A stretch of 64,000 nucleotides of DNA from Liolophura sinensis (taxonomy: Eukaryota; Mollusca; Polyplacophora; Chitonida; Chitonidae). The DNA is taken from contig NC_088299.1 in NCBI RefSeq assembly GCF_032854445.1, positions 18,221,608-18,285,607 of the forward strand. Reading direction: 5' to 3'. Below are positions 12,377 through 57,130 of this stretch, one piece after another (the stretch's first letter is position 1; the number at the start of each line of letters is the position of its first letter). Made by a program: the position numbers and the translations under genes. The notes below the pieces were generated by a model. The model worked only from the letters and a program-made list of their open reading frames with translations. It had not been told where the DNA came from and ran no database searches.

Positions 12377-15300
12377 ATGAATTCGTCCAAACCAAGATCT
12401 AAGGTGGGGTAAGTAGAACATCCGTCTTTTTTTTCCTCACACGGTTAGATCAATACTAGAAAGATTCATCCTGGAATAGCATTTACATGTCAACGTCCAC
12501 GCTATCGCCAGGGCCAAGGTATTACCTTCCACAGTCCATGTTGCCCGTAGTGACGCATGCGGAGAAACAAACAAAACTAGACATCAATGGATCGTCGACA
12601 AAAGCGACAGGTAGAGATCTGTAGAAGGGGAAATAACTCTAGAAGGATCCAGTCCTCTCTTGAATGGACGATGTGAATGCCATTTGTAAGAGTTGAATTG
12701 CCTAGCATAAATGTGTTTTAAATTCATTGAAATAAAATTGTCAACCCACCAGTATGACTATGTGTAAAACCCTCTAGATATTTAAACACAGCGCTCGACT
12801 GTGGGTCTATATCATTTGGAAGATGTTATCTGCATCATGATGTGTGGTACTTGGGCGGATAAAGCTATGTGACATACAAGCGGACTGGGGCATGAGTAGA
12901 CATCAAAGGATTAAAATGTATCATACCTGGACGGATTACGTAGGCATTATTTATCCTGTAACGTCATTTGATGACCTATAGAATTGGCACACAGACTTAA
13001 CAATGGGGTGTTCCAGGTATGAGTTTTCACTACCTCAACCATCGATTACATATGTAGCCTTCTGTTATGTTCTCAGATTATCTTCTCAAACTGACACATA
13101 AGCCGTTGGAATATATTACTGTGTCTGTAAAAATTATCAAATACAGTATTCACTTCGAAACAATTTTTCATTATATGTGTGAATTGCAGGATCTAGTTTC
13201 AGCTATTTATTTCTCACATCTAAAAATCGATAAGCCGATAGTATACTATTTAAGTTATAATATCACATTAAATACAATATATTTTAAAAGTGTTACATTA
13301 ACACTTCAAAAACATTTATTTGGTGATTTATTTTATTGGTGTTTGATCATGTGCAATATTTTGGTATTGAACGTGGTGCGAGTTCAATACCAGCTCGGGA
13401 TACAGAAATAGTGGATTCCCCGCTCTGTGTTCTTGATCTCTTTGTACCGATAATGAACAATTTATTGCCCACTAATATGGTGTGCATACCTGTGTTACAC
13501 GTGGAAAAGTGCGTCAGTAACTTACACAAGGCTGATGTTAATCCCGAGTACTTGATCAGGAGTCTTCCGCCAATATGGTGTGCATATCTGTGTCACACGT
13601 GGAAAGGTGCGTCAGTAAGTTACACAAGGCTGGTGTTAATCCCGAGTACTTGATCAGGAGTCTCCCACCAGTACCGTGTGGATACCTGTGTCACAGGTGG
13701 GAAAGTGCGTCAGTAATTTACATAAGGCTGATGTTAATCCCGAGTACTTGATCAGGAGTCTTCCGCCAATGTGGTGTGCATATCTGTGTCACGTGGGAAA
13801 GTGCGTCAGTAACTTACACAAGGCTGATATTAATTCCGAGTACTTGATCAGGAGTCTCCCGCCAATACCGTGTGCATACCTGTGTCAGACGTGGAAAAGT
13901 GCGTCAGTAACTTACACAAGGCTGATGTTAATCCCGAGTACTTGATCAGGAATCTCCCGCCAATACCGTGTGGATACCTGTGTCACACGTGGAAAAGTGC
14001 GTCAGTAACTTACACAAGGCTGGTGTTAATCCCGAGTACTTGATCAGGAGTCTTCCGCCGATATGGTGTGCATATCTGTGTCACACGTGGGAAAGTGCGT
14101 CAGTAACTTACACAAGGCTGGTGTTAATCCCGAGTACTTGATCAGGAGTCTTCCGCCAATATGGTGTGCATACCTGTGTCAGACGTGGAAAAGTGCGTCA
14201 GTAACTTACGCAAGGCTGGTGTTAATCCCTATGTACTCGATCAGGAGTCTTCCGCCAATATGGTGTGCATATCTGTGTCACACGTGGAAAAGTGCGTCAG
14301 TAACTTACACAAGGCTGGTGTTAATCCCTATGTACTCGATCAGGAGTCTTCCGCCAATATGGTGTGCATACCTGTGTCACAGGTGGGAAAGTGCGTCAGT
14401 AATTTACATAAGGCTGATGTTAATCCCGAGTACTTGATCAGGAGTCTTCCGCCAATATGGTGTGCATATCTGTGTCACACGTGGAAAAGTGCGTCAGTAA
14501 CTTACACAATGCTGGTGTTAATCCCTATGTACTCGATCAGGAGTCTCCCGACAATAAAGCTGAGTGGTGAGAGCAGGGAATGTACAAATTTCTATGATTT
14601 ACACAACATGTTCAGATTTCAAATTCCAAATAACTACTTTATAGGCTTTATGGTTTATAGGTTCGTTTGGTCTCATTTTTCCTAACCCTAAATTTCGTTG
14701 CCTTAGTGTTGTATTTTATGGTCTTTATGGAGATCCCCCCCAAAATACATGGATTTTACAAGAAAAATATAGAATTCTTAATATGTTACATATCAGACAA
14801 GCATGCCTAATAGGTTAAATTTATCAACATATAAGCTTTCTGTTCCATACAGCTCCACGCCACCCAAGCCAACACCGGCTCCAAAACCGACCAGTGGACC
14901 TAAGTCAACCACCGGGGCTAAAATCACGAAGGGTCCAAACACCGGAAAGAATGGCGCCCGGAAGACCAGTGGTGTGTCGGACAATTCGATTAAGAGTCTG
15001 AAACCGCTGACAAAAGAATCACAAGTTAGAAGAGAGATTCTCAGAGGAAAGCTCGACTTAGACTGCCCATCTAATGCCAAGGTCGTCCGTATCTTCACCA
15101 GCAGTACATTCACAGGTAACGTCCACATCCTCACCAACTCTACATTTACAGGTAACGCCCACACCCTCACTAGCAGTATATTCACAGGTAACGTCCACGC
15201 CCTCACTAGCAGTACATTGACAGGTAACGTCCACACCCTCACCATCAGTACATTCACAGGTAACATCCGCATCCTCACCATCAGTACATTCACAGGAAAC

Positions 15301-18300
15301 GTCCACATCCTCATCATCAGTACGTTTACAGGTAACGCCCACACCCTCACGAGCAGTACATTCACAGGTAACATCCACATCCTCACCATCAGTACATTCA
15401 CAGGTAACATCCACATCCTCACCATCAGTACATTCACAGGTAACATCCACATCCTCACCATCAGTACATTCACAGGTAACGTCCACATCTTCACCATCAG
15501 TACATTCACAGGTAACGTCCACATCCTCACCATCAGTACATTCACAGGTAACATCCACATAATCATCATCAGTATATTCACAGGTAACATCCACATCCTC
15601 ACCATCAGTACATTCACAGGTAACGTCCACATCCTCACCATCAGTACATTCACAGCTAATATCCACATACTCACCATCAGTACATTCACAGGTAATATCC
15701 ACATTCTCACCATCAGTACATTCACAGGTAACATCCACATCCTCACCATCAGTACATTCACAGGTAACGTCCACATCCTCACCAACTCTACATTTACAGG
15801 TAACGCCCACACCCTCACTAGCAGTACATTCACAGGTAACGTCCACGCCCTCACTAGCAGTACATTGACAGGTAACGTCCACACCCTCACCATCAGTACA
15901 TTCACAGGTAACATCCGCATCCTCACCATCAGTACATTCACAGGAAACGTCCACATCCTCATCATCAGTACGTTTACAGGTAACGCCCACACCCTCACGA
16001 GCAGTACATTCACAGGTAACATCCACATCCTCACCATCAGTACATTCACAGGTAACATCCACATCCTCACCATCAGTACATTCACAGGTAACGTCCACAT
16101 CCTCACCATCAGTACATTCACAGGTAACGTCCACATCTTCACCATCAGTACATTCACAGGTAACGTCCACATCCTCACCATCAGTACATTCACAGGTAAT
16201 ATCCACATTCTCACCATCAGTACATTGACAGGTAACATCCACATCCTCACCATCAGTACATTCACAGGTAACGTCCACATCCTCACCAACTCTACATTTA
16301 CAGGTAACGCCCACACCCTCACTAGCAGTACATTCACAGGTAACGTCCACGCCCTCACTAGCAGTACATTGACAGGTAACGTCCACACCCTCACCATCAG
16401 TACATTCACAGGTAACATCCACATCTTCACCATCAGTACATTCACAGGTAACATCCACATCCTCACCATCAGTATATTCACAGGTAACATCCACATCCTC
16501 ACCATCAGTACATTCACAGGTAACGTCCACATCCTCACCATCAGTACATTCACAGCTAATATCCACATACTCACCATCAGTACATTCACAGGTAATATCC
16601 ACATTCTCACCATCAGTACATTGACAGGTAACATCCACATCCTCACCATCAGTACATTCACAGGTAACGTCCACATCTTCACCATCAGTACATTCACAGG
16701 TAACGTCCACATCCTCACCATCAGTACATTCACAGGTAACATCCACATAATCATCATCAGTATATTCACAGGTAACATCCACATCCTCACCATCAGTACA
16801 TTCACAGGTAACGTCCACATCCTCACCATCAGTACATTCACAGCTAATATCCACATACTCACCATCAGTACATTCACAGGTAATATCCACATTCTCACCA
16901 TCAGTACATTCACAGGTAACATCCACATCCTCACCATCAGTACATTCACAGGTAACGTCCACATCCTCACCAACTCTACATTTACAGGTAACGCCCACAC
17001 CCTCACTAGCAGTACATTCACAGGTAACGTCCACGCCCTCACTAGCAGTACATTGACAGGTAACGTCCACACCCTCACCATCAGTACATTCACAGGTAAC
17101 ATCCGCATCCTCACCATCAGTACATTCACAGGAAACGTCCACATCCTCATCATCAGTACGTTTACAGGTAACGCCCACACCCTCACGAGCAGTACATTCA
17201 CAGGTAACATCCACATCCTCACCATCAGTACATTCACAGGTAACATCCACATCCTCACCATCAGTACATTCACAGGTAACATCCACATCCTCACCATCAG
17301 TACAATCACAGGTAACGTCCACATCTTCACCATCAGTACATTCACAGGTAACGTCCACATCCTCACCATCAGTACATTCACAGGTAACATCCACATAATC
17401 ATCATCAGTATATTCACAGGTAACATCCACATCCTCACCATCAGTACATTCACAGGTAACGTCCACATCCTCACCATCAGTACATTCACAGCTAATATCC
17501 ACATACTCACCATCAGTACATTCACAGGTAATATCCACATTCTCACCATCAGTACATTGACAGGTAACATCCACATCCTCACCATCAGTACATTCACAGG
17601 TAACGTCCACATCCTCACCATCAGTACATTCACAGGTAACATCCACATCCTCACCATCAGTACATTCACAGGTAACATCCACATAATCATCATCAGTATA
17701 TTCACAGGTAACATCCACATCCTCACCATCAGTACATTCACAGGTAACGTCCACATCCTCACCATCAGTACATTCACAGGTAACATCCACATCCTCACCA
17801 TCAGTACATTCACAGGTAACGTTCACATCCTCACCATCAGTACATTCACAGGTAACATCCACATCCTCACCATCAGTACATTCACAGATGACATCCACAT
17901 CCTCATCAGCAGTATATTCACGGGTAACATCCACATCCTCACCATCAGTACATTCACAGGTAACGTCCACATCTTCACCATCAGTACATTCACAGGTAAC
18001 GTTCACATCCTCACCATCAGTACATTCACAGGTAACGTCCACATCCTCACCATCAGTACATTCACAGGTAACATCCACATCCTCATCAACATTACATTCA
18101 CAGGTAACATCCACATCCTCTCCATCAGTGCATTCACAGGTAACGTCCACATCCTCACCATCAGAGAATGAAGAAATTGGATAATCAGTCTATTGATAAC
18201 TCTTACTTCTTTAACTGCTTCCTGCTATAAACTGATCACTCTGTGTAGGTACTGCATTTTTCACACGTACCGATGGTCTTGTTTTGCTTTTTGACCAGAC

Positions 18301-21300
18301 TCTTCTCACGAGAGAAATGCATTAATGGCCCGAGTGTATCCTAAATTGAAGAGCCTGTGTCAAGAGGCAGGGTACGAGTTCCAGGTCGTGGACATGAGAT
18401 GGGGAGTACGAGACGAAGCCACTGACAATCACATGACCACGGAGCTGTGTCTACGAGAGGTTAAAAATTGCCAACGATTATCAACTGGACCGAATTTTGT
18501 TGTAAGATATATACCACGTCTTGTTAATATGTATTTGGACAGGCGTCTGTTTGATGAAAGCGATTTGTCAAGAAGGATTAAAAGAAAACATGCTACCGTT
18601 CAACTTTATGATGTTTTCCAAAGTTTATGATCTGAAAAGGGATCATTTGCTATAAGAAATTCACAGGTGGATTTGGTAGAAAATGGTGTTACGAATCTAA
18701 GGTATCAGAGATACATTTTGTCATGTATTTCATGAAAATTATTCTTACTTAGAATAATTCTTCACTACTGTATTTGTTTGAGATATGGATAGTCAGGCAT
18801 TACATACCGTATAACAGCAGTTGAGTAGTTTGTGTTGTAGTAAGATTTGTCTCGCTCCAGTCTAATGTCTCTCATCAAACTGTCACGCTTGACTTACGTG
18901 CTATGAATACGCATCAGCTGATTTTTTTTTCTCATTAAAGGAGTTTGGACTTATCGAATCTTGTGCTGCATGAGTCCCAAATTAATAACACATTTTATAT
19001 TTTCTGATTCCAGACGTTTTTATCACATAAGTATGGCTACAGATCATTTCCGAGTAAAATAGAAGCCAGGGAGTTCGAGAAAATGTTTGGTAAAATAGAA
19101 GGCAGTGAAGACAAGGAGCTGGTAAACAAGTAAGATTGTCACTCTTATTTTTGTGGTGTTTGCCAGAAAAACTGTTCAGATGCCAAACACTTTGTGATTT
19201 ATTTATTTATGTGATTGGTATTTTACACCAAAATCAGGAATATTTTACTTACACAACGTCTGAAAGCATTGTGGTGGAAGGAAGTTGGGCAGAGCCCAGA
19301 GAAAGTCCACGACCATCCGCAGGCTGCTGCAAGGTCTTCCCAGTTAATGCCACAGAAGAAAGCAAGACTTGTGTATATGTTGGAAAATTTTTGGGGCTGA
19401 TATACATTGGTTATAGATGTTGTAAAACCATAAGAAAATGAGAAAATATTAACTTTGTGAAATCAAAGTGTATATTGTGCATATTGATTCATTCCACTGT
19501 GATTGTAATCTAGGAAGGATCAGAAATGAGTGTAACATAGACATATTGAGTACAACATACATTTCATATTTGCTCTGCCATGATACTAAATGGTGTTTTT
19601 TTCCGTGTTTACTTCTAGGTGGTTTAAGAAGGACGACAACTCTGTGCCTTCATCCTACCTCTTCCTACCTGTCAGCACGCACTTTCCGGACTTCATTTCC
19701 AGTGACACAGACAAACGGTCAGCCGCCAAACAAGCATGGAACGAAGAAAGCATCAAAGTGAAGGAAATAGTTGTAAACATTGCTGAAAAGGTGCTACCAC
19801 CGAATGACCGGAACAAGTACATGATATCAGGTAACCAAGAACGTTTGTGTTCTCATATAAATGATGATATCTAAATCCGAACTGGTGTGAATCTCAGGAT
19901 ATTAAAATAATATTAGTACCTTTTTGCTTGATAGACTGGCAGTGATATATAAAAATATGTGTACATCGATTTGTTGGTATGTTCATGTCCACTGGTGGAC
20001 ACGTTATTTAAAATGGCAGTGTATTCTTGAGAACGGCGTAAATCACCAATCAAATATGTAAGCTGTCAATGTTTGTACTTTGCTACCAATAAACATATAT
20101 AGTTTGTGAACCGCTCTAACTAATGCCTCATTCTTTACGTCTCCATCCCTTCTATCCATCAGTGACCGAAGCGGAGATAAAGGCGGGGATTCTGTCAGCT
20201 GATGACGTGAACAACCATTGTGTCTGGTTTAAGCGACTTATACCGGAAATAGAAGACAAGGAAAAATCGGACCTGTTGACAAAGTATATTGGTGAGATTT
20301 CCAATAAAGCTGGTCAAGTTATCGAAATATATATAGAAATATAAGCATTGCAGTAGCTTTTTATGCCGCACAGACCATTACAGAAACGAAAGCTTCTAGA
20401 TGCTAATGCCAGTACTACAGTCATATCAAGGCCTTATAAGAAAACGGAAATAGGAAACGATTTTATGGATTGTTTGAAAAGGTAAACAATTTTTTTTGTG
20501 AAGATGTCAAAACTCAGTTTTCCAAAGTGGAAATCAGTGGTAACAAAGTTTCGTTGTTTCACAGATTTTTCGTCGTCAGAGAGGGAGCAGACTCAGAAAA
20601 GAGTTCTGCTGAAAGAACTAGCGCAGAAGAAACTACCGGCTGTGTTAGGGGCATCTCAGATCCACAGCCATGTTGTTCACTGGACGGAGAAAGGTCAGTA
20701 TGCTGGTTACGACACGGGTTCCCGCGCATCTGTTTTGAGGAAATAGGTAGAACAACCAAATGACTTTGCAACAGAACGTCACGGTTATACATATGGTTGT
20801 GTGCGTTATCGGTTGTCTTTCCTTCCGGTGAAACGCGACATTTGCCCTGGCGTGAGTGTACGTATGATTATAGCTTGGAGAACCCGCGCAAGCCCAGTTG
20901 TAGAAAATTACAGACATCACTCAATGAAATGTGATTCTCATTTGATCTAAAGCAAGGAAACCCAAATCTATCCACCTTTTGCCTTAACTGAGCTTTGGCC
21001 ATTCTTTATAGTGTGATATAAATAGTAAACTTCAGAAACATATATTCGACCGCTTTTCTCCGCACCTAAAGCAAAGAATGCAAAGGTTTGTACTTCATAG
21101 AATGGCCTATATACATTTACCTTTCCCATTCTTTGAATATTACATGTAGGTATTGACCCCGAAGGCAATGAAGATCATAAGAAATACATCGATGATCTTT
21201 GTGAGGACTTTGACAAGACAATTACGGATATGATCACGACTGGAATAGACGAGAGGAACAAGCACGCTATAGCTGATGATCTGTATGAAGAAGTTCTGCA

Positions 21301-30300: not shown

Positions 30301-33300
30301 AGAGAACAATCGGAGTACCATGAGATAATAATCCTTGTACCGTCAAAGTACAATCCTTGCACAATCAGAGTTCCAGGAGATAACAATCCATGTACAATCA
30401 GAGTACAATCAGATAACAATCCTTGTACAATCAGAGTACCATTAGATAACAATCCTTGTACAATCAGAGTACCATCAGACAACAATCCTTGTACAATCAG
30501 AGTACCATCAGATAACAATCCTTGTACAATCAGAGTACAATCAGATAACAATCCTTGTACAATCAGAATACCATCAGATAACAATCCTTGTACAATCAGA
30601 GTACAATCAGATAACAATCCTTGTACCATCAAAGTGCAATCCTTGTTCAGAGTACCATCAGATAACAATCCTGGTATAATTAGAGTACCATCATATAACA
30701 ATCCTTGTACCATCAAAGTGCAATCCTTGTACAGAGTACCATCAGATAACAATCCTGGTATAATTAGAGTACCATCATATAACAATCCTTGTACCATCAA
30801 AGTGCAATCCTTGTACAGAGTACCATCAGATAACAATCCTGGTATAATTAGAGTACCATCATATAACAATCCTTGTACCATCAAAGTACAATCCTTGTTC
30901 AGAGTACCATCAGATAACAATCCTGGTATAATTAGAGTACCATCATATAACAATCCTTGTGCCATCAAAGTGCAATCCTTGTACAGAGTACCATCAGACA
31001 ACAATCCTGGTATAATTAGAGTACCATCATATAACAATCCTTGTACCATCAAAGTGCAATCCTTGTTCAATTAGAGTATCATCTGAATACCAAATCACAA
31101 ATCAATGACCCCCCAGGCCGTCCAAGTTTTCCTCTATACACGTCTACAACAAAGTGATGTACGATTTCAGGATGATAGAGAGGTTGCCAAATCCTCGTTA
31201 CATTTTCGTCCTCAACAGTCGAAGGGAGATGCAAATCTATGACTTGGTCAAAAAGGTGTATGTGAGATCCGCCAAGGTTAATGACGAACCGGTAAGTAGG
31301 GATTCCTCGTGTTCACCGTTGTAGTTGTGATTCAGATCAAATCTAGCAAGTACTTTCTTATATTGAAGTAAACACCACTTACGCCGAAAAATACACCTTC
31401 ATATTCAAGTCAATGGTGGATGTCAATTCTTTATGTACCTCGCTATCCATAGGTGAAGAATGTCAAATGGCACGTGATTGACCAGAAGATGGCAGTGGTT
31501 TTGACGGATGATCGCCAACTACAGCTCATTGACTTAGACCGGATGGAGCCGATCAGGATGCTGCAGGGCTACCTTCCCAAGTACAATTCGGAGATTGTCG
31601 TTCGGAAACAGGCCAAAGGTAGGGATGGTCACATGACTTGTGCGACAAGTGGTTCGCTGTTCGTCTGCTATGTTTCCTAACTACAGTGGAGGTAATCATA
31701 TTATCGTCATCTGCCATCTGACATACACCATAGATATTACAAGAAAACGGCCTTGTAATCTGACCCAAATAACGCACCTGGAAAGTAGAAAGTTAAAATT
31801 TAAATTAATCAGTTAATCCGTCCAATCAGTCAATTTAAACAACCTGCATCTCTACGATTCTGAAACTGACGCAACGCCTATCTGCATACATTAACGCACA
31901 TTTGATATAGAATAGAATTATTGAGCACAATTAGAAATGTTATAATGTTTTGCTCCATCCATTTGTCTGATGTCGGCCAAGTTTGTAGATTACGAATACA
32001 TGTATATCAAGCGTGGAAAAAATACTATTAGGCTACCATACACGTAATTATCCATATAAAATGAAAACAAGATGGTCGTGGGTTACCCAAACCCCCTTAA
32101 CCCCCCCCCCCCCCCCCCAGATAACTGTAAGAAAATGGAATGACAAGGTTTTTATTAAAGTAGCCCTGGAATTGCAAAATATCGTCTGCTTCTGACAGTT
32201 ACGATAGTATGGGTCAACTTTGGATGTGAAAAAATCTTTTGACATCTGATATTTTCCTCTCCAGAAATCATTACAACCACCAGGGGACGTAAACAACTCA
32301 AAATTTACAACATGGACACCGGATTGACGGTGAAGATCATGGAGACCAACCAAACAAAACCTGTCGAGGATCTTTTGGTGAGAATTGGAAAGATTTTCAC
32401 AAAATAGTACACAATATTTTAATGATCGCTGGAAACTGTTAAGGTTGTCGGTGTGTAACATGAACTAGATAACCAGGAATACACGAGCAGTATAACACAT
32501 TAGTGTAAACATTGCACAGGGATTACCAACATATATTTTGAAACTGTTTCTCCAGATGAGCAAGGACGGCAACTGGCTGGCTGTTACGCTCGACGAAGGT
32601 CCGTTGTTAATCTACAACCTAGCGGAGCGGCAATGTCGTCACGTGCTCAAGGAAGCCATGGTCGGCGAGTACCCGTCCCTGTCAGACGCCTTGTTTACTC
32701 CATGCAGTACCTTCTTCCTGATAAACTGTAGCCGTTCTTATCCGCACGAGGCTGACGTAGACGAGTATTATTACGTAGTAATTAATATAGAGACAGGTAA
32801 GTAATGCATTTCGCTATATTGTACTGTCCAGCAAAAACAAAAACCTATTTAGGCTGTCACCGTTTGTTGCTTAGCACCATTTCCAAGCAGACACTCACGA
32901 GTTCGCTAAAATATTATATAAGATTTCAATATTGTCCACATATTCTGCCGCTCTCACGTTCGCTTTACATTACCGTGACCATTTAAAATTTTGTACAGAA
33001 ACCTTGCACGACGTCAAGGTCACTGGAGTCACAGTGATGAGACAGGAACTGATGTCAGAAAACACAAACACTCTGTCTCAGTCTTTGTCTTTGTATATTC
33101 TCGATAAACCTGCTTTCTCTTTATCTAAAGTATCCACACCATGATTCCAACGGACAATTGAAATAATTTTATTTATGAATCGGTGGTGAGGTTAAGCCTA
33201 GACAAGCCAACGGGCGTGTAGCACAGGCCCAAAAGGTCAAGGTTTTCTAGTGATGGCACATACGCTGTAAGGAGTATCTATTGTCCCGCCAGATGCAAAG

Positions 33301-51500: not shown

Positions 51501-54500
51501 CAGAGTGGATTTTTTCCTAATGCCGGTGATCAAATAATTTCAGACCAGTCTCTAAAGAGTGATGAAGAGTTGGGTGTGTTGGCTGAAAACTTTCGAGAAC
51601 AAGCAGCCAAACTTGTGGAGATGCTGGATATTTCCATTCCAGTTGTGGCAAAATTAAAGGTACTTGTATGGAATTGAACTCTTATTTGACATCATTACAT
51701 AGCTTATTTAACATTAAATGTTTTGCCTGATTCATGTGACTTTGTTATGGTACAAGCTACTCAAAATGTATTTAGGGGGCCTCCGTGGCTCAGTAGGTTA
51801 GTGTGCTAGTGCAACCTACTGACTTAGTAGCCTCTCAACAATGCGGTCACTGTGAGTTCAAGTCCAGCTCATGATGGCTTCCTTTCCGGATGCAAGTGAG
51901 AAGGTCTTCCAGCAACCTGCCGATGGTCGTGGGTTTCCTTCCATCATAATGCTGGCTGCCGTCGTATAAGTGAAATATTCTTGAGTACGGCGTAAAACAC
52001 CAATCAAATAAATAAATAAGAAAACAAAATGTATTTATTTATTTGTTTAATTCAAGATTACAGGAGCTAAAAAATGTGCATGGTTTGATGGCAATATGGC
52101 ATGGTTTTTTTTTGTCATGTTTGTACTTGTGAGGAATTTTGTACTGAATGCTTTGGTTGATATTTGTTTATGAGCGTACATTGATCCTGTTGTTTTTTTC
52201 TTAAGTTTAATTGTATTCAACGAACAATGGACAAAAGTAGTTTTGTTGTATGACATTATTTTACAACACTGATTGATATACCTGAATTTTTCACATTTAA
52301 CAAATATTTTATGGGTGGAAGAAACCAGGATGCTTGGAGTAATCCGTCCTTTGGTATAAAGTTTTACTGTCAAACTTTTTAATATGTGACGTGCATGTAC
52401 TTCATATTGATGAGGTCAGGTGATCTGTTGTAAGCTTCATGTAACACTGCATGAAAAAACAATGTCGGTCACTTATTATGTCATCAGAGAATGTTATTGA
52501 ACCAAAGTTTTGTGTGACCGAGCAGTTGACCTAAAATGTATGTATTCTACAACCACCTGCTTTGTTTCCTGTAGTTATAAGTTCAAGTGTAAAATGAACA
52601 GTTGGTTATACCACTTACCAATTCCACTTACCAGTACCACTACACAGCCATAAAACCAGCAATTGCACCTTGTTGTGGTTGTTTGTATGACAGAGGATGT
52701 TGGAGAACCTACCTAGTGAGCACCTACCAGACCTGTGCGCTGCCATTGTTAAGGCCTCCTTCACAGAGAAAGTTCAGGTACTGGATGCGCTGGATTTGAC
52801 AGAGCGATTCAGGAAGACGCTGCCTTTGTTGATGAGGCAGATTGAGGTGAGGCTTTAACCAGGAGTGATTGTCTCGTATCTGAAGTCCATGTACCAGGAG
52901 TGGGTGTCTTGTATCTGAAGTCCATGTACCAGGAGTGGGTGTCTTGTATCTGAAGTTCATGTACCAGGAGTGGGTGTCTGATATCTGAAGTTCATATACC
53001 AGGAGTGGGTGTCTTGTATCTGAAGTTCATGTACCAGGAGTGGGTGTCTTGTATCTGAAGTTCATGTACCAGGAGTGGGTGTCTGATATCTGAAGTTCAT
53101 ATACCAGGAGTGGGTGTCTTGTATCTGAAGTACATGTACCAGGAGTGGGTGTCTTGTATCTGAAGTAGATGTACCTGGAGTGGGTGTCTTGTATCTGAAG
53201 TACATGTACCTGGAGTGGGTGTCTTGTATCTGAAGTAAATGTACATGTACCAGGAGTGGGTGTCTTGTATCTGAAGTAAATGTACATGTACCAGGAGTGG
53301 GTGTTTCGTATCTGAAGTAGATATACCAGGAGTGGGTATCTCATATCTGAAGTAGATGTACTAGGAGTGGGTGTTTCGTATCTGAAGTACATGTACCTGG
53401 AGTGGGTGTCTCGTATCTGAAGAATATGTATGTTGGCTTGAAAAGGAGGGATTAAGTTAATAACCATATTTGAGTCCACTTGTTCGCTATTGAAAACGCA
53501 GAAATGTGCCTGGTACTAATGTACATTGGAATTGAAACAAGTGTTAACATTATTATATTTGCTTCAGTAATATGTCAGAAAGAATGCATTCAAGTGAAAA
53601 ATAAAGATCATAAAAAATAGCTTTGGCTACTCAAACATTTTACCTGTAGGATTTCATATTACCTTCAAAGAAAACTGTTAACCACTTTTCAAAACTTTAT
53701 ATCAAATACAGTAATTTGAACTACTTACTTCTGTACCATCTTCAAAGTATTATGAGATACTCACCTATTGTTAGGTAAATTGTATGAAACAAATTAGGTG
53801 AGATACTCATCTATTGTTAGGTAAATTATATGAAACAAATCAGGTGAGATACTCACCTATTGTTAGGTAAATTGTATGAAACAAATTAGGTGAGATACTC
53901 ATCTATTGTTAGGTAAATTATATGAAACAAATCAGGTGAGATACTCACCTATTGTTAGGTAAATTGAATGAAACAAATCAGGTAAGATACTCACCTATTG
54001 TTAGGTAAATTGTATGAAACAAATCAGGTGAAATACTCACCTATTGTTAGGTAAATTGTATGAAACAAATCAGGTGAGATACTCACCTATTGTTAGATAA
54101 ATTGAATGAAACAGGTCTAAATTTACAGGCCTTCTGTTTTAAGGAGAACTGTCCAATGCTTTAATCTTAATTACACTCTAGAAAAAGACATAACAGAATT
54201 TGTGATTGTTTTGTGTCATTTTGATATCCGATATCTCTGTAATGCTGAAATGTCATTATGCTCATTGAAACATTCTGCACGTAAATGATAATCTTAATAC
54301 AGGGACTTAAGCTTCTACAGAAAGCCCGCAAAGAGAACGTGGAAATTGTGAGTCGCCGGGAAACTGGGCGACCAATCAACATGAAGAGGGTGTTCAGGAA
54401 ACTGTCCAATAAGGATTTAGAAGAAGAAGTAGATGAGGAGCAAGATGATAATCTTGATCTGGAACAAAAACTCAAGTAAGGACCTTGATCTGGTTATCAT

Positions 54501-54598: not shown

Positions 54599-57130
54599 GG
54601 TGAAATGTCAGGATTTCCTTCAACGGTAAGAGTGTTTTTTTCACATGTTAGATACCACTAGCATAGAGCAGCGTAATGATCTAGGAGCCTCTCACCAATG
54701 CGGTCACTGTGAGTTTAAATCCAGCTCATGCTGGCTTCCTTTCCGGCTGTATGTGCGAAGGCCTGTCAGCAACATGCAGATGGTCATGGGTTTCTCTAGG
54801 GCTCTACCTGGTTTGCCTGGCACCATAATGCTGGTGGCTGTCATTTAAGTGAAATATTCTTGAGTACGGCATATAACACGTATCAAATAGATAATTAAAT
54901 ATCATAGGTTTTATTACATTTTGATATTTTAAACCCAGAAAAGTGTTATTTCACACATTAAATAACACTGGTGTTATTGCATTTCATATGTTTCATGTTT
55001 CATATTACTAGTGTAATTACATTTTGATATTTTACATGTTAGATATCACTAGTGTTATTACATTTTGATATTTTACATGTTAGATATCACTAGTGTTATT
55101 ACAGTTTGATATTATACATGTTAGATATCACTAGTGTTATTACAGTTTGATATTATACATGTTAGATATAACTAGTGTTATTGCATCTTGATATTTTACA
55201 TATCAAAGAGTTCATGTCTTCATATATGTTACTCTATATGCACTATGGGTCTGAAGGTTTATAACCATTGGTTGATATTACAGAGCAGCACAGCTTCCTG
55301 AACATGCTCACAAGCACGCCATGAAGGATCTGAAGCGACTCAAGCAGATGAGCTCTCACATGCCAGAGCATGCTATGTTAAGGTGAGTCACTGTAGTGGC
55401 TGAACAGATGGACTGTCTTATGCCAGAGCATGCTATGTTAAGGTGAGTCACTGTAGTGGCTGAACAGATGGGCTGTCTTATGCCAGAGCATGCTACGTTA
55501 AGGTGAGTCACTGTAGTGGCTGAACAGATGGACTGTCTTATGCCAGAGCATGCTATGTTAAGGTGAGTCACTGTAGTGGCTGAACAGATGGGCTGTCTTA
55601 TGCCAGAGCATGCTATGTTAAGGTGAGTCACTGTAGTGGCTGAACAGATGGACTGTCTTATGCCAGACCATGCTACGTTAAGGTGAGTCACTGTAGTGGC
55701 TGAACAGATGGGCTGTCTTATGCCAGAGCATGCTACGTTAAGGTGAGTCACTTAGTGGCTGAACAGATGGGCTGTCTTATGCCAGAGCATGCTATGTTAA
55801 GGTGAGTCACTGTAGTGGCTGAACAGATGGGCTGTCTTATGCCAGAGCATGCTACGTTAAGGTGTGTCACTTTAGTGGCTGAACAGATGGGCTGTCTTAT
55901 GCCAGAGCATGCTATGTTAAGGTGAGTCACTGTAGTGGCTGAACATATGGGCTGTCTTATGCCAGAGCATGCTATGTTAAGGTGAGTCACTGTAGTGGCT
56001 GAACAGATGGACTGTCTTATGCCAAAGCATGCTACGTTAAGGTGAGTCACTGTAGTGGCTGAACAGATGGACTGTCTTATGCCAGAGCATGCTACGTTAA
56101 TGTGAGTCACTGTAGTGGCTGAACAGATGGGCTCTCAAACGCAAGAGCATGTTGTGTTAAAGTGAGTCACCATATAGCGGCTGAACCAGAATGGCTCTCA
56201 TATCACTTCAGTGATAATGTCATTGTGACAGATTTACTAACAACTCACATATCTGCACATATTCATACCAGGAAAGTAAAATTAATATGAATAAGGGCTG
56301 TGTTGGCAATGTGTATAGGCTCTTTCATGTGTGCTTTCCAATTACCAGCCAAACAGCCAAACTGGCCTGCAGAGCATGGTCTGGAATGTGTGATATCACC
56401 AGTTGAGAGCTGATCAGACTCTACAGGTCTTCATGTAGCAAAGTGGAACTCATCCATGTACTAGTGACTCGTATAGATTTTGGCATGACAAAACTTGCCT
56501 TACTGAACATGAAATGTTGTCAATCCATTGATATTCTTACCAAAAAGAGCTTTTTATTCAACTTTGGATTGTTGTAAAAAATATTTTTCCGTTTGTTATA
56601 GTGGCATACAAAATTTTTTAGGGTCGCTAGTCAAGAGCGGTAAGAGTTTTCTGTGTTGTGTGTATAATTAATATACACCTTCCTCAGTTGTCTTTCATCA
56701 TTCGGGAGATTTTGCTGTACACTGTATGTATTTCGTACTAGAGGTCATCATTTAATAGCAACATTCATATTGCCTGTGAGCATCAACAATGTGATATTAC
56801 TGGGACATCAACCAAAACACGGCCTTTTTTTTCTCATTATAAACTCTTGTACCAATCACTAAACGCCTACTACGAGTTTTACTATTTTAAAATCTTATGT
56901 CTGATTTTCAGTTTTGGTGACATGATATTGTTCCTTAATTGAATAGATTGATGTATGATGTATAGTAAATAAAGATAGCCTACTGATCACTTTTCCTATT
57001 GACAGTGACCTGGATAAGTATTTCTATTCTACTGGTGTTTTTTATGTATAAACAGGAATTACCTGGAGTTGATGGCGGAGTTGCCATGGTCCAAAAGCTC
57101 CAAGGATACCCTGGATATTATCCAAGCCAG
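48519..57130 (+). CDS. LONP2: LONP2, LON substrate-binding N-domain exons
   Basis: Exons 1-8, residues 1-337. The start reads [14 protein letters not shown], matching the short N-terminus of peroxisomal Lon, with no cleavable signal. The LON N-domain covers about 10-220. Exon 6 carries an acidic linker ('[18 protein letters not shown]') where the family has a variable acidic segment. Exons 7-8 give '[20 protein letters not shown]' and '[20 protein letters not shown]', the helical neck before the ATPase. The exon 7 donor is GTGAGT at 55383, inside a tandem array. Confidence 0.93.

What the first reader, a model, noticed from the sequence alone, without database searches (positions are those of the whole stretch)
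15091..18165. A minisatellite that copies a 5' splice site about 85 times, always in frame
The 36-bp unit consists of the last 25 bases of coding exon 2 and the first 11 of the intron. Nearly every unit thus carries CAG-GTAACG. Because 36 is a multiple of 3 and the array has no stop in the coding frame, splicing from any unit to the acceptor at 18299 keeps the protein in frame. It would insert n copies of a 12-residue repeat (like GNVHILTISTFT) between the SSTFT and D-S-S-H-E-R parts of the DUF4062-like domain. This could generate protein length variants both by alternative splicing and by repeat-number change in the germline. That any downstream donor is used is inference.
Basis: partly seen in the sequence, partly recalled or inferred. 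Interest (0 to 1): 0.93.

Follow-up and report, generated by a model that had tools for sequence, protein, structure and literature searches.

The report
Repeat array grown from splice site
In a chiton gene, the short sequence that marks the end of an exon has been copied about 85 times in a row into the intron; similar arrays sit at other exon ends in this genome, and here the copies happen to stay readable as protein, so the cell may be able to add a repeated peptide, though that has not been shown.

Summary
A 36-bp unit (25 exonic + 11 intronic bases) repeats 85 times from 15091 to 18164; 76 of 85 units keep AG|GT, 39 of 85 the exact CAGGTAACG. The array starts at a real 5' splice site: joining 15115 to 18299 rebuilds a DUF4062 domain that aligns without gap to TEP1, and three paralogs have the same phase-1 intron.

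The genome matches Liolophura sinensis, a chiton. Exon-intron minisatellites are known as "mirages" in amphioxus, and human IFI6 uses downstream repeats as donors. Here they recur: LONP2 in this window, one NWD paralog, and 11 of 35 sampled donor-bearing arrays start at an exon with Pfam or PDB homology; control edges gave 0 of 25. I did not show that donors are targeted.

"Always in frame" is no evidence of function: none of the 108 single changes to the unit makes a stop, an antisense frame is equally open, and 12 of 17 such arrays hit a stop within 25 residues. Best reading: a neutral mirage spliced mainly at the first donor, with minor in-frame variants possible. No RNA data could be consulted.

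The parts
14853..15115 (+). Coding exon ('exon 2'), ends ...VVRIFTSSTFT + first base of the next codon (phase 1)
   Evidence: open frame; acceptor CATACAG before 14853 read by eye; end supported by three paralogs and TEP1
15091..18164 (+). 36-bp minisatellite, 85 whole units, 25 exonic + 11 intronic bases per unit
   Evidence: TRF; unit table
15116..15121 (+). First donor, CAG|GTAACG, taken as the ancestral 5' splice site
   Evidence: same residue and phase in L003, L004, L008
15116..18298 (+). Intron (3183 bp) holding units 2-85
18299..18500 (+). Next coding exon, DSSHERNALMARVYPKLKSLCQEAGYEFQVVDMRWGV...; acceptor TTTTTGACCAG|ACTC; its end (about 18500) was set by eye
   Evidence: Pfam DUF4062 on the joined product; TEP1 3.2e-10
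55285..55383 (+). LONP2-like exon end ...MPEHAMLR, donor AAG|GTGAGT
   Evidence: by eye; no Pfam hit for these 33 residues and only a chance PDB hit; other Lon exons of the gene are supported
55345..56186 (+). Second donor-derived minisatellite in the window: 60-bp unit, 14 copies, 11 perfect AGGTRAGT; read-through meets TGA at once

Best explanation
This is a mirage-type minisatellite: a short tandem duplication that straddled the donor of an older intron in an NWD/TEP1-like gene grew into the intron by repeated unit and block duplication. The first donor (15116) stays where it was, so the exon is unchanged whatever happens downstream, and the gene is mainly spliced at unit 1. Shown: the anatomy, an intron shared with paralogs of which two lack an array, block duplications inside the array, and that the zero-repeat product is the conserved domain. 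Inferred: that unit 1 is the main donor, that downstream units are used at most as a minority, and that the stop-free 12-residue frame is a by-product of a unit that is a multiple of three and at least two changes away from any stop codon.
For: Zero-repeat join gives Pfam DUF4062 E 4.7e-6 and a gapless match to TEP1 11gz_A across the junction, E 3.2e-10. Same intron, same phase, in L003 and L004 without an array (introns 670 and 328 bp) and in L008 with an unrelated 21-bp array at the same donor. Copying in blocks: a 17-unit run (units 11-27) recurs as units 44-60; 28 distinct units among 85. No single change makes a stop; variant spectrum not different from neutral. Same anatomy at LONP2 and at 11 homology-supported exons among 35 sampled donor-bearing arrays; 8 of those 11 meet a stop within 25 residues on read-through. 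Amphioxus mirages are reported not to interfere with regular splicing (PMC3087553, passages).
Against: Unit 1 has no visible sequence advantage: 76 of 85 units match the U1 consensus in 7 of 9 positions, unit 1 among them. In human IFI6 a comparable repeat does supply used downstream donors (PMC4526556, passage). Ten of 17 array periods are multiples of three (p = 0.027, uncorrected, set chosen by me). The intron is not universal in the family: L010 and L012, more distant matches, read straight through this point.
Confidence: 0.68

Rival explanations
1. Downstream units are used as donors at an appreciable rate, giving a ladder of mRNAs with n x 12 inserted residues (n small), without the ladder being selected; as in IFI6.
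For: 76 of 85 donors score the same as unit 1 or are unit 1; frame open for all n; IFI6 precedent.
Against: Sister arrays that would truncate the product suggest that donor 1 usually wins; insertion would split a conserved motif. No RNA data.
Confidence: 0.25
2. The ladder is functional: repeat-number change and alternative donors diversify the protein of an NWD/TEP1-like gene and are kept by selection.
For: 36 bp keeps phase, no stop in 85 units; a coiled-coil-like gene (L092) has an open 36-bp donor array too.
Against: Openness is automatic, antisense frame 0 equally open; no significant excess of silent variants; the class as a whole does not keep frame.
Confidence: 0.06
3. Each unit's CAG|GT works as a recursive or zero-length splice point, so the array is removed stepwise or yields 36-bp mini-exons.
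For: Each unit reads ...ACATTCACAG|GTAAC with a G-poor, C/T/A-rich upstream part; mirages were proposed as a source of new introns (PMC3087553, passage).
Against: No branch-point or lariat evidence; CAG|GT is what many exon ends look like.
Confidence: 0.05
4. Exon 2 is not part of the working gene (transcription starts downstream of 18299, or the gene is dead).
For: No transcript evidence was available; I did not build the whole gene.
Against: Junction conserved in position and phase in three paralogs; domain intact across the junction.
Confidence: 0.05

Closest known systems
Amphioxus 'mirages' (minisatellite-like tandem duplications of exon-intron boundaries; Adh3, globins, PGBD5, troponin C)
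   Same: Unit spans an exon edge and the intron; many but not all units keep AG/GT; several unrelated genes; unit lengths of tens of bp or more (passages of PMC3087553 and PMC3902484)
   Different: Mollusc, not a cephalochordate; 85 units here against 6 and 3 for the two BflGb6 haplotypes; whole array open in frame. Amphioxus has them at acceptors too; I looked only for donors
[quoted passage not shown] 1995)
   Same: Repeat units that can act as donors beyond an exon end (PMC4526556, passage)
   Different: In IFI6 two downstream units are used as donors; here use is unknown. That its unit is 12 bp with 26 copies is recalled, not read; the 1995 paper is not held
Internal tandem repeats at exon-intron boundaries of human genes in segmental duplications (PMC2812944)
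   Same: Minisatellite units at exon-intron boundaries that can alter splicing (passages)
   Different: There the variable repeats lie in exons or create new introns between recent paralogs; here an existing donor is multiplied into the intron
Ordinary intronic minisatellites, e.g. 27-bp repeat in intron 3 of abalone TSSK1-like, variable between individuals (PMC6905558)
   Same: Tandem repeat in a mollusc intron (passages); about 20% of this window is tandem repeat
   Different: Here the first unit is the exon's coding end and donor; the abalone passages do not say that its repeat spans a splice site

Membership tests
Mirage-type minisatellite | Tandem unit comprises the exon edge and adjoining intron | tested here: met
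   25 exonic + 11 intronic bases; exon edge supported by homology
Mirage-type minisatellite | Many units carry AG/GT splice signals | tested here: met
   76 of 85
Mirage-type minisatellite | Present at several unrelated genes of the same genome | tested here: met
   LONP2-like gene, NWD paralog L008, and 11 of 35 sampled donor arrays with a homology-supported exon
Mirage-type minisatellite | Regular splicing is not disturbed | not testable with these tools
   no RNA data
Mirage-type minisatellite | Length instability between alleles or somatically | not testable with these tools
   one assembly; only internal block duplication seen
IFI6-like multiple-donor minisatellite | Repeat resembles the donor consensus and begins at an exon end | tested here: met
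IFI6-like multiple-donor minisatellite | Unit is a multiple of three and stop-free in frame (feature recalled) | tested here: met
IFI6-like multiple-donor minisatellite | Downstream units are used as donors | not testable with these tools
   no RNA data
NWD1/TEP1-like DUF4062 protein | DUF4062 domain in the joined exons | tested here: met
   PF13271 4.7e-6, 27.1 bits over the 24.7 cut-off; TEP1 11gz_A 3.2e-10
NWD1/TEP1-like DUF4062 protein | NACHT-type ATPase and WD40 repeats downstream | tested here: inconclusive
   AAA_16 4.8e-4 and WD40-type profiles (best 7e-5), all below their cut-offs; several other exons had no hit

The most novel reading that the evidence does not exclude
The array is a working donor ladder: the spliceosome picks among some 76 equivalent donors, so one locus makes a graded set of proteins with 0, 12, 24... 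extra residues between the first strand and first helix of the DUF4062 domain, and unit gain or loss shifts the set between individuals. Chitons would carry a genome-wide population of such ladders, out of which in-frame ones (this gene, the coiled-coil-like gene at L092) are kept.
Probability: 0.1. Interest if true: 0.85.

Novelty: new member of a known kind. Interest (0 to 1): 0.45.

Why it matters
How the spliceosome chooses among several equal 5' splice sites is, to my knowledge, mostly studied with a few copies in minigenes. This genome offers natural cases with 11 (LONP2) to about 76 equal donors in one intron, in several genes, some frame-keeping and most not. It also carries the amphioxus mirage phenomenon to a mollusc: searches of the paper library listed no report of exon-boundary arrays in molluscs (listings only; one search listed 12 of 132 papers). 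And it gives a place to test the proposal that such arrays seed new introns or exons.

Tried and rejected
In-frame openness as a sign of selection: rejected. Donor targeting of array formation: not shown. Triples of the donor motif are the most frequent per single motif of six 8-mers tested (29.1 per 1000; its reverse 13.4; two shuffles 19.9 and 23.3; acceptor-like 8.2; its reverse 4.1), and the stricter AAGGTRAGT gives 218 against 103 for its reverse. But match counts are swollen by long arrays, and some AGGTRAGT sites are real donors anyway (6 lie outside arrays in the window; at least the one at 32795 looks like a coding end), so finding exons at donor-bearing arrays is partly built into the choice. 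Array density from the listed places (about 2.3 against 0.3 per Mb) rests on capped lists of one chromosome; on the forward strand alone the first 13 Mb hold 7 donor arrays and 6 or 7 control arrays. Structure of the repeat peptide: AlphaFold gave a confident all-beta model (pLDDT 96.1, but 41-68 in the other four models); the antisense-frame control also gave a beta model (81.5), so I give it no weight. LONP2 exon against PDB: only a chance lectin hit. A Pfam CRAL_TRIO_2 hit at L023 is in the wrong frame. Amphioxus origin of the window was my first guess; mitochondrial gene order, 632 contigs and 609 Mb speak against it. Acceptor-side arrays were counted but not examined.
Full report
Observation. 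The array is real and at the stated place: TRF gives 15091-18164, 36 bp, 85.4 copies, 0% indels. Cut in register it has 85 whole units of 25 exonic plus 11 intronic bases; 77 of 85 have GT at the donor position, 76 of 85 AG|GT, 39 of 85 exactly CAGGTAACG. The exon's last base is 15115 and the intron begins at 15116. The unit is private: a 20-mer of it has 41 exact matches in the assembly, all here.

Where it is. The window lies in G000:C5:18221608-18285607 of a 609,464,459-base, 632-contig assembly. The mitochondrial contig has cox1, cox2, atp6, cox3, nad3 and nad2 on one strand and nad5, nad4, nad4L, cob, nad6 and nad1 on the other (my reading of the frames), which I recall as the ancestral molluscan order. 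The number of scaffolds (632) and the longest one (96,433,062) match the published chiton assembly first called Liolophura japonica and since corrected to L. sinensis (PMC11068029, passages; PMC12441733, whole text). The published total is 609,495,693, about 31 kb more than G000. That assembly used HiFi reads of mean 8,347 bp at 14x, longer than this 3.1-kb array.

The gene. Joined at 15115/18299 the two exons give Pfam DUF4062 (4.7e-6, above the curated cut-off) and match TEP1 in PDB 11gz_A without a gap across the junction (3.2e-10). Downstream exons show AAA and WD40-type matches below their cut-offs, and several have none, so NWD1/TEP1-like is the likely class; I did not build the full gene.

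The intron is older than the array. A search with the joined exons gave 15 matches, the window among them; 12 loci were fetched. In three paralogs (L003, L004, L008) both sides of the intron could be read, at the same residue and phase: SSTF-x-G| ... |A(C/T) for Asp; in L002 the acceptor side only. L003 and L004 have no array there (introns 670 and 328 bp). L008 has a different minisatellite, 21 bp with CTCAG|GTAAAC, starting at the same donor. So two of the four readable donors carry arrays, with unlike units. Against a family-wide intron: L010 and L012, more distant matches, read straight through this point. L005, L006, L007, L009 and L011 did not settle it.

How it grew. There are 28 distinct units; a run of 17 units (11-27) recurs exactly as units 44-60, with shorter runs at other shifts. 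This is growth by blocks, as in unequal exchange or slippage.

The frame. Stops are absent in the coding frame, but also in antisense frame 0; of the 108 possible single-base changes of the consensus unit none makes a stop in the coding frame. So a length divisible by three plus this unit is enough. The 31 distinct variants are 21 nonsynonymous and 10 synonymous, against 83 and 25 possible (p = 0.21).

Donor strength. By match to CAGGTAAGT, 76 of 85 units score 7 of 9, unit 1 among them; one scores 6 and eight have no GT. Nothing in the nine bases favours unit 1; exon length or enhancers in the exon body would have to.

Is it alone? No. In this window the LONP2-like exon ...[14 protein letters not shown] leads into a 60-bp array (55345-56186) with 11 perfect AGGTRAGT; read-through meets TGA immediately. 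The gene's Lon identity rests on other exons; the 33-residue exon itself had no useful database hit.

Genome sample. Arrays with three AGGTRAGT at periods of 16-46 bp give 1485 matches, against 644 for the motif read backwards, with near-equal single counts (50,973 and 47,894). I took the 15 distinct arrays that I counted in the 100 listed places and the 20 new ones in the list, and fetched the upstream side. Open frames at that edge were listed and scanned with Pfam (31 ORFs; 38 ORFs). By the fixed rule (E < 1e-3) 11 of 35 arrays hit: ankyrin (L017), Core-2/I-branching enzyme (L021), fucosidase (L028), iron-only hydrogenase family (L029, which I take for CIAO3/NARFL), 7tm_1 (L077), signal peptide peptidase (L082), CAMSAP CH (L084), TARSH (L087), sideroflexin (L093), sulfotransferase (L095), and CRAL_TRIO_2 at L023. 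Eight of these exceed Pfam's own cut-off; fucosidase, sideroflexin and CRAL_TRIO_2 do not. The CRAL_TRIO_2 hit is in the wrong frame, but L023's right frame matches a Mot1/BTAF1-type 'Helicase-like protein' in PDB (3.8e-11; the Mot1 name is my recall). L028's edge was set by hand. Without L023 and L028 the count is 9 of 35.

Do the units span the boundary there? Compared with the TRF unit in phase, the exon end matches in 10 to 25 of 25 bases and the intron start in 10 to 12 of 12 in ten of the eleven; the weakest exon match is L028 (10 of 25). L082 was set one base off in that script; its first unit starts 18 bases before the donor. At L021 and L077 TRF's own array start lies 49 and 26 bp beyond the exon end.

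Controls for the sample. Both edges of 15 of about 17 listed arrays of the reversed motif: 25 of 30 edges located (one piece was all array), 112 ORFs on both strands, 0 below 1e-3 (best 0.0022, cytochrome P450). Downstream edges of the first 15 donor arrays: 11 of 15 located, 17 ORFs, 0 hits. 11/35 against 0/25 gives p = 0.0016, against 0/36 p = 0.00016, against 0/15 control arrays p = 0.021; 9/35 against 0/25 p = 0.007. Four donor arrays with doubtful or unresolved edges (L020, L031, L086, L094) count as misses. By eye, further coding exon ends lead into arrays at L030, L080, L089, L091, L092 and L096; these have no homology support. At L027 and L022 an exon lies just upstream but the join is unclear.

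What the sample says and does not say. Arrays that start on a coding exon's donor are a recurrent class in this genome. It does not show that donors attract arrays, because I chose arrays that carry donor motifs; other 8-mers of like composition form triples at 0.46 to 0.80 of the donor's rate per single site.

Consequence for splicing. Of 17 exon-end arrays that I followed (14 with homology, paralogy or Lon context, 3 by eye: L030, L080, L092), the exon frame read into the array meets a stop within 25 residues in 12. Longer are the present gene (1018 residues), L021 (66), L023 (64), L028 (58) and L092 (open to the end of the piece, more than 46; 36-bp unit, VSVVTSELEAHK). In the twelve a downstream donor would tend to truncate or alter the product, which suggests that unit 1 is normally used; this is inference. 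Ten of 17 periods are multiples of three (p = 0.027 uncorrected), yet seven of those ten are among the twelve with early stops, so frame-keeping does not explain it.

Known precedents. Amphioxus mirages: PMC3087553 (passages) and PMC3902484 (passages). IFI6: PMC4526556 (passages) states that two downstream repeat units act as donor sites; Turri et al. 1995 is known to me only by its reference and by recall (not held). Human repeats at exon-intron boundaries: PMC2812944 (passages). An abalone gene has a length-variable minisatellite in an intron (PMC6905558, passages), and earthworm metallothionein genes have repeats in intron 1 (PMC12783039, passages); neither set of passages says that a splice site is included. 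A C. elegans study links minisatellites near alternative exons to splicing decisions (PMC4039745, passages). I saw no report of the kind in molluscs in the listings of searches (12 of 132 listed) and 92.

Verdict. A true and well-described feature, of a known kind, in a phylum where I saw no earlier report, unusually long and open. The protein-diversity idea is possible and untested; I put appreciable downstream-donor use at about one in four and selected function at about one in sixteen.

Noticed in passing
L092 (G000:C6:77354828 on): 36-bp donor array after a coiled-coil-like exon (...KMKAELEAHK|), in frame and open over the fetched piece as (VSVVTSELEAHK)n: a second candidate for a 12-residue ladder.
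   Followed up: partly
L083 (G000:C3:2904682, minus strand): The first unit after the apparent exon end reads CAAAG|ATAAGT, GT lost, while later units keep GT: a possible natural case of forced downstream donor use. Coding status by eye only.
   Followed up: no
L008:614-1184: Paralog with a degenerate 21-bp donor array at the homologous intron; read-through stops after 23 residues.
   Followed up: yes
window, all: About 20% of the window is tandem repeat (23 merged arrays).
   Followed up: partly
window 53753-54113: 46-bp array whose unit has donor-like sites on both strands (CAGGTGAGA, TAGGTAAAT; antisense TAGGTGAGT), within the stretch of the LONP2-like gene.
   Followed up: no
G000:C99: Contig with seven cox1 matches about 15.5 kb apart, as if made of head-to-tail mitochondrial genomes; C632 is a 15,209-bp contig with one. 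Possibly an assembly artefact.
   Followed up: no
G000:C1:1416335-1421099: Very long 45-bp array (GATGAAGTYACCACAG...) of nearly 5 kb.
   Followed up: no
17 exon-end arrays: 10 of 17 periods are multiples of three although seven of these meet early stops; unexplained, may be chance.
   Followed up: partly
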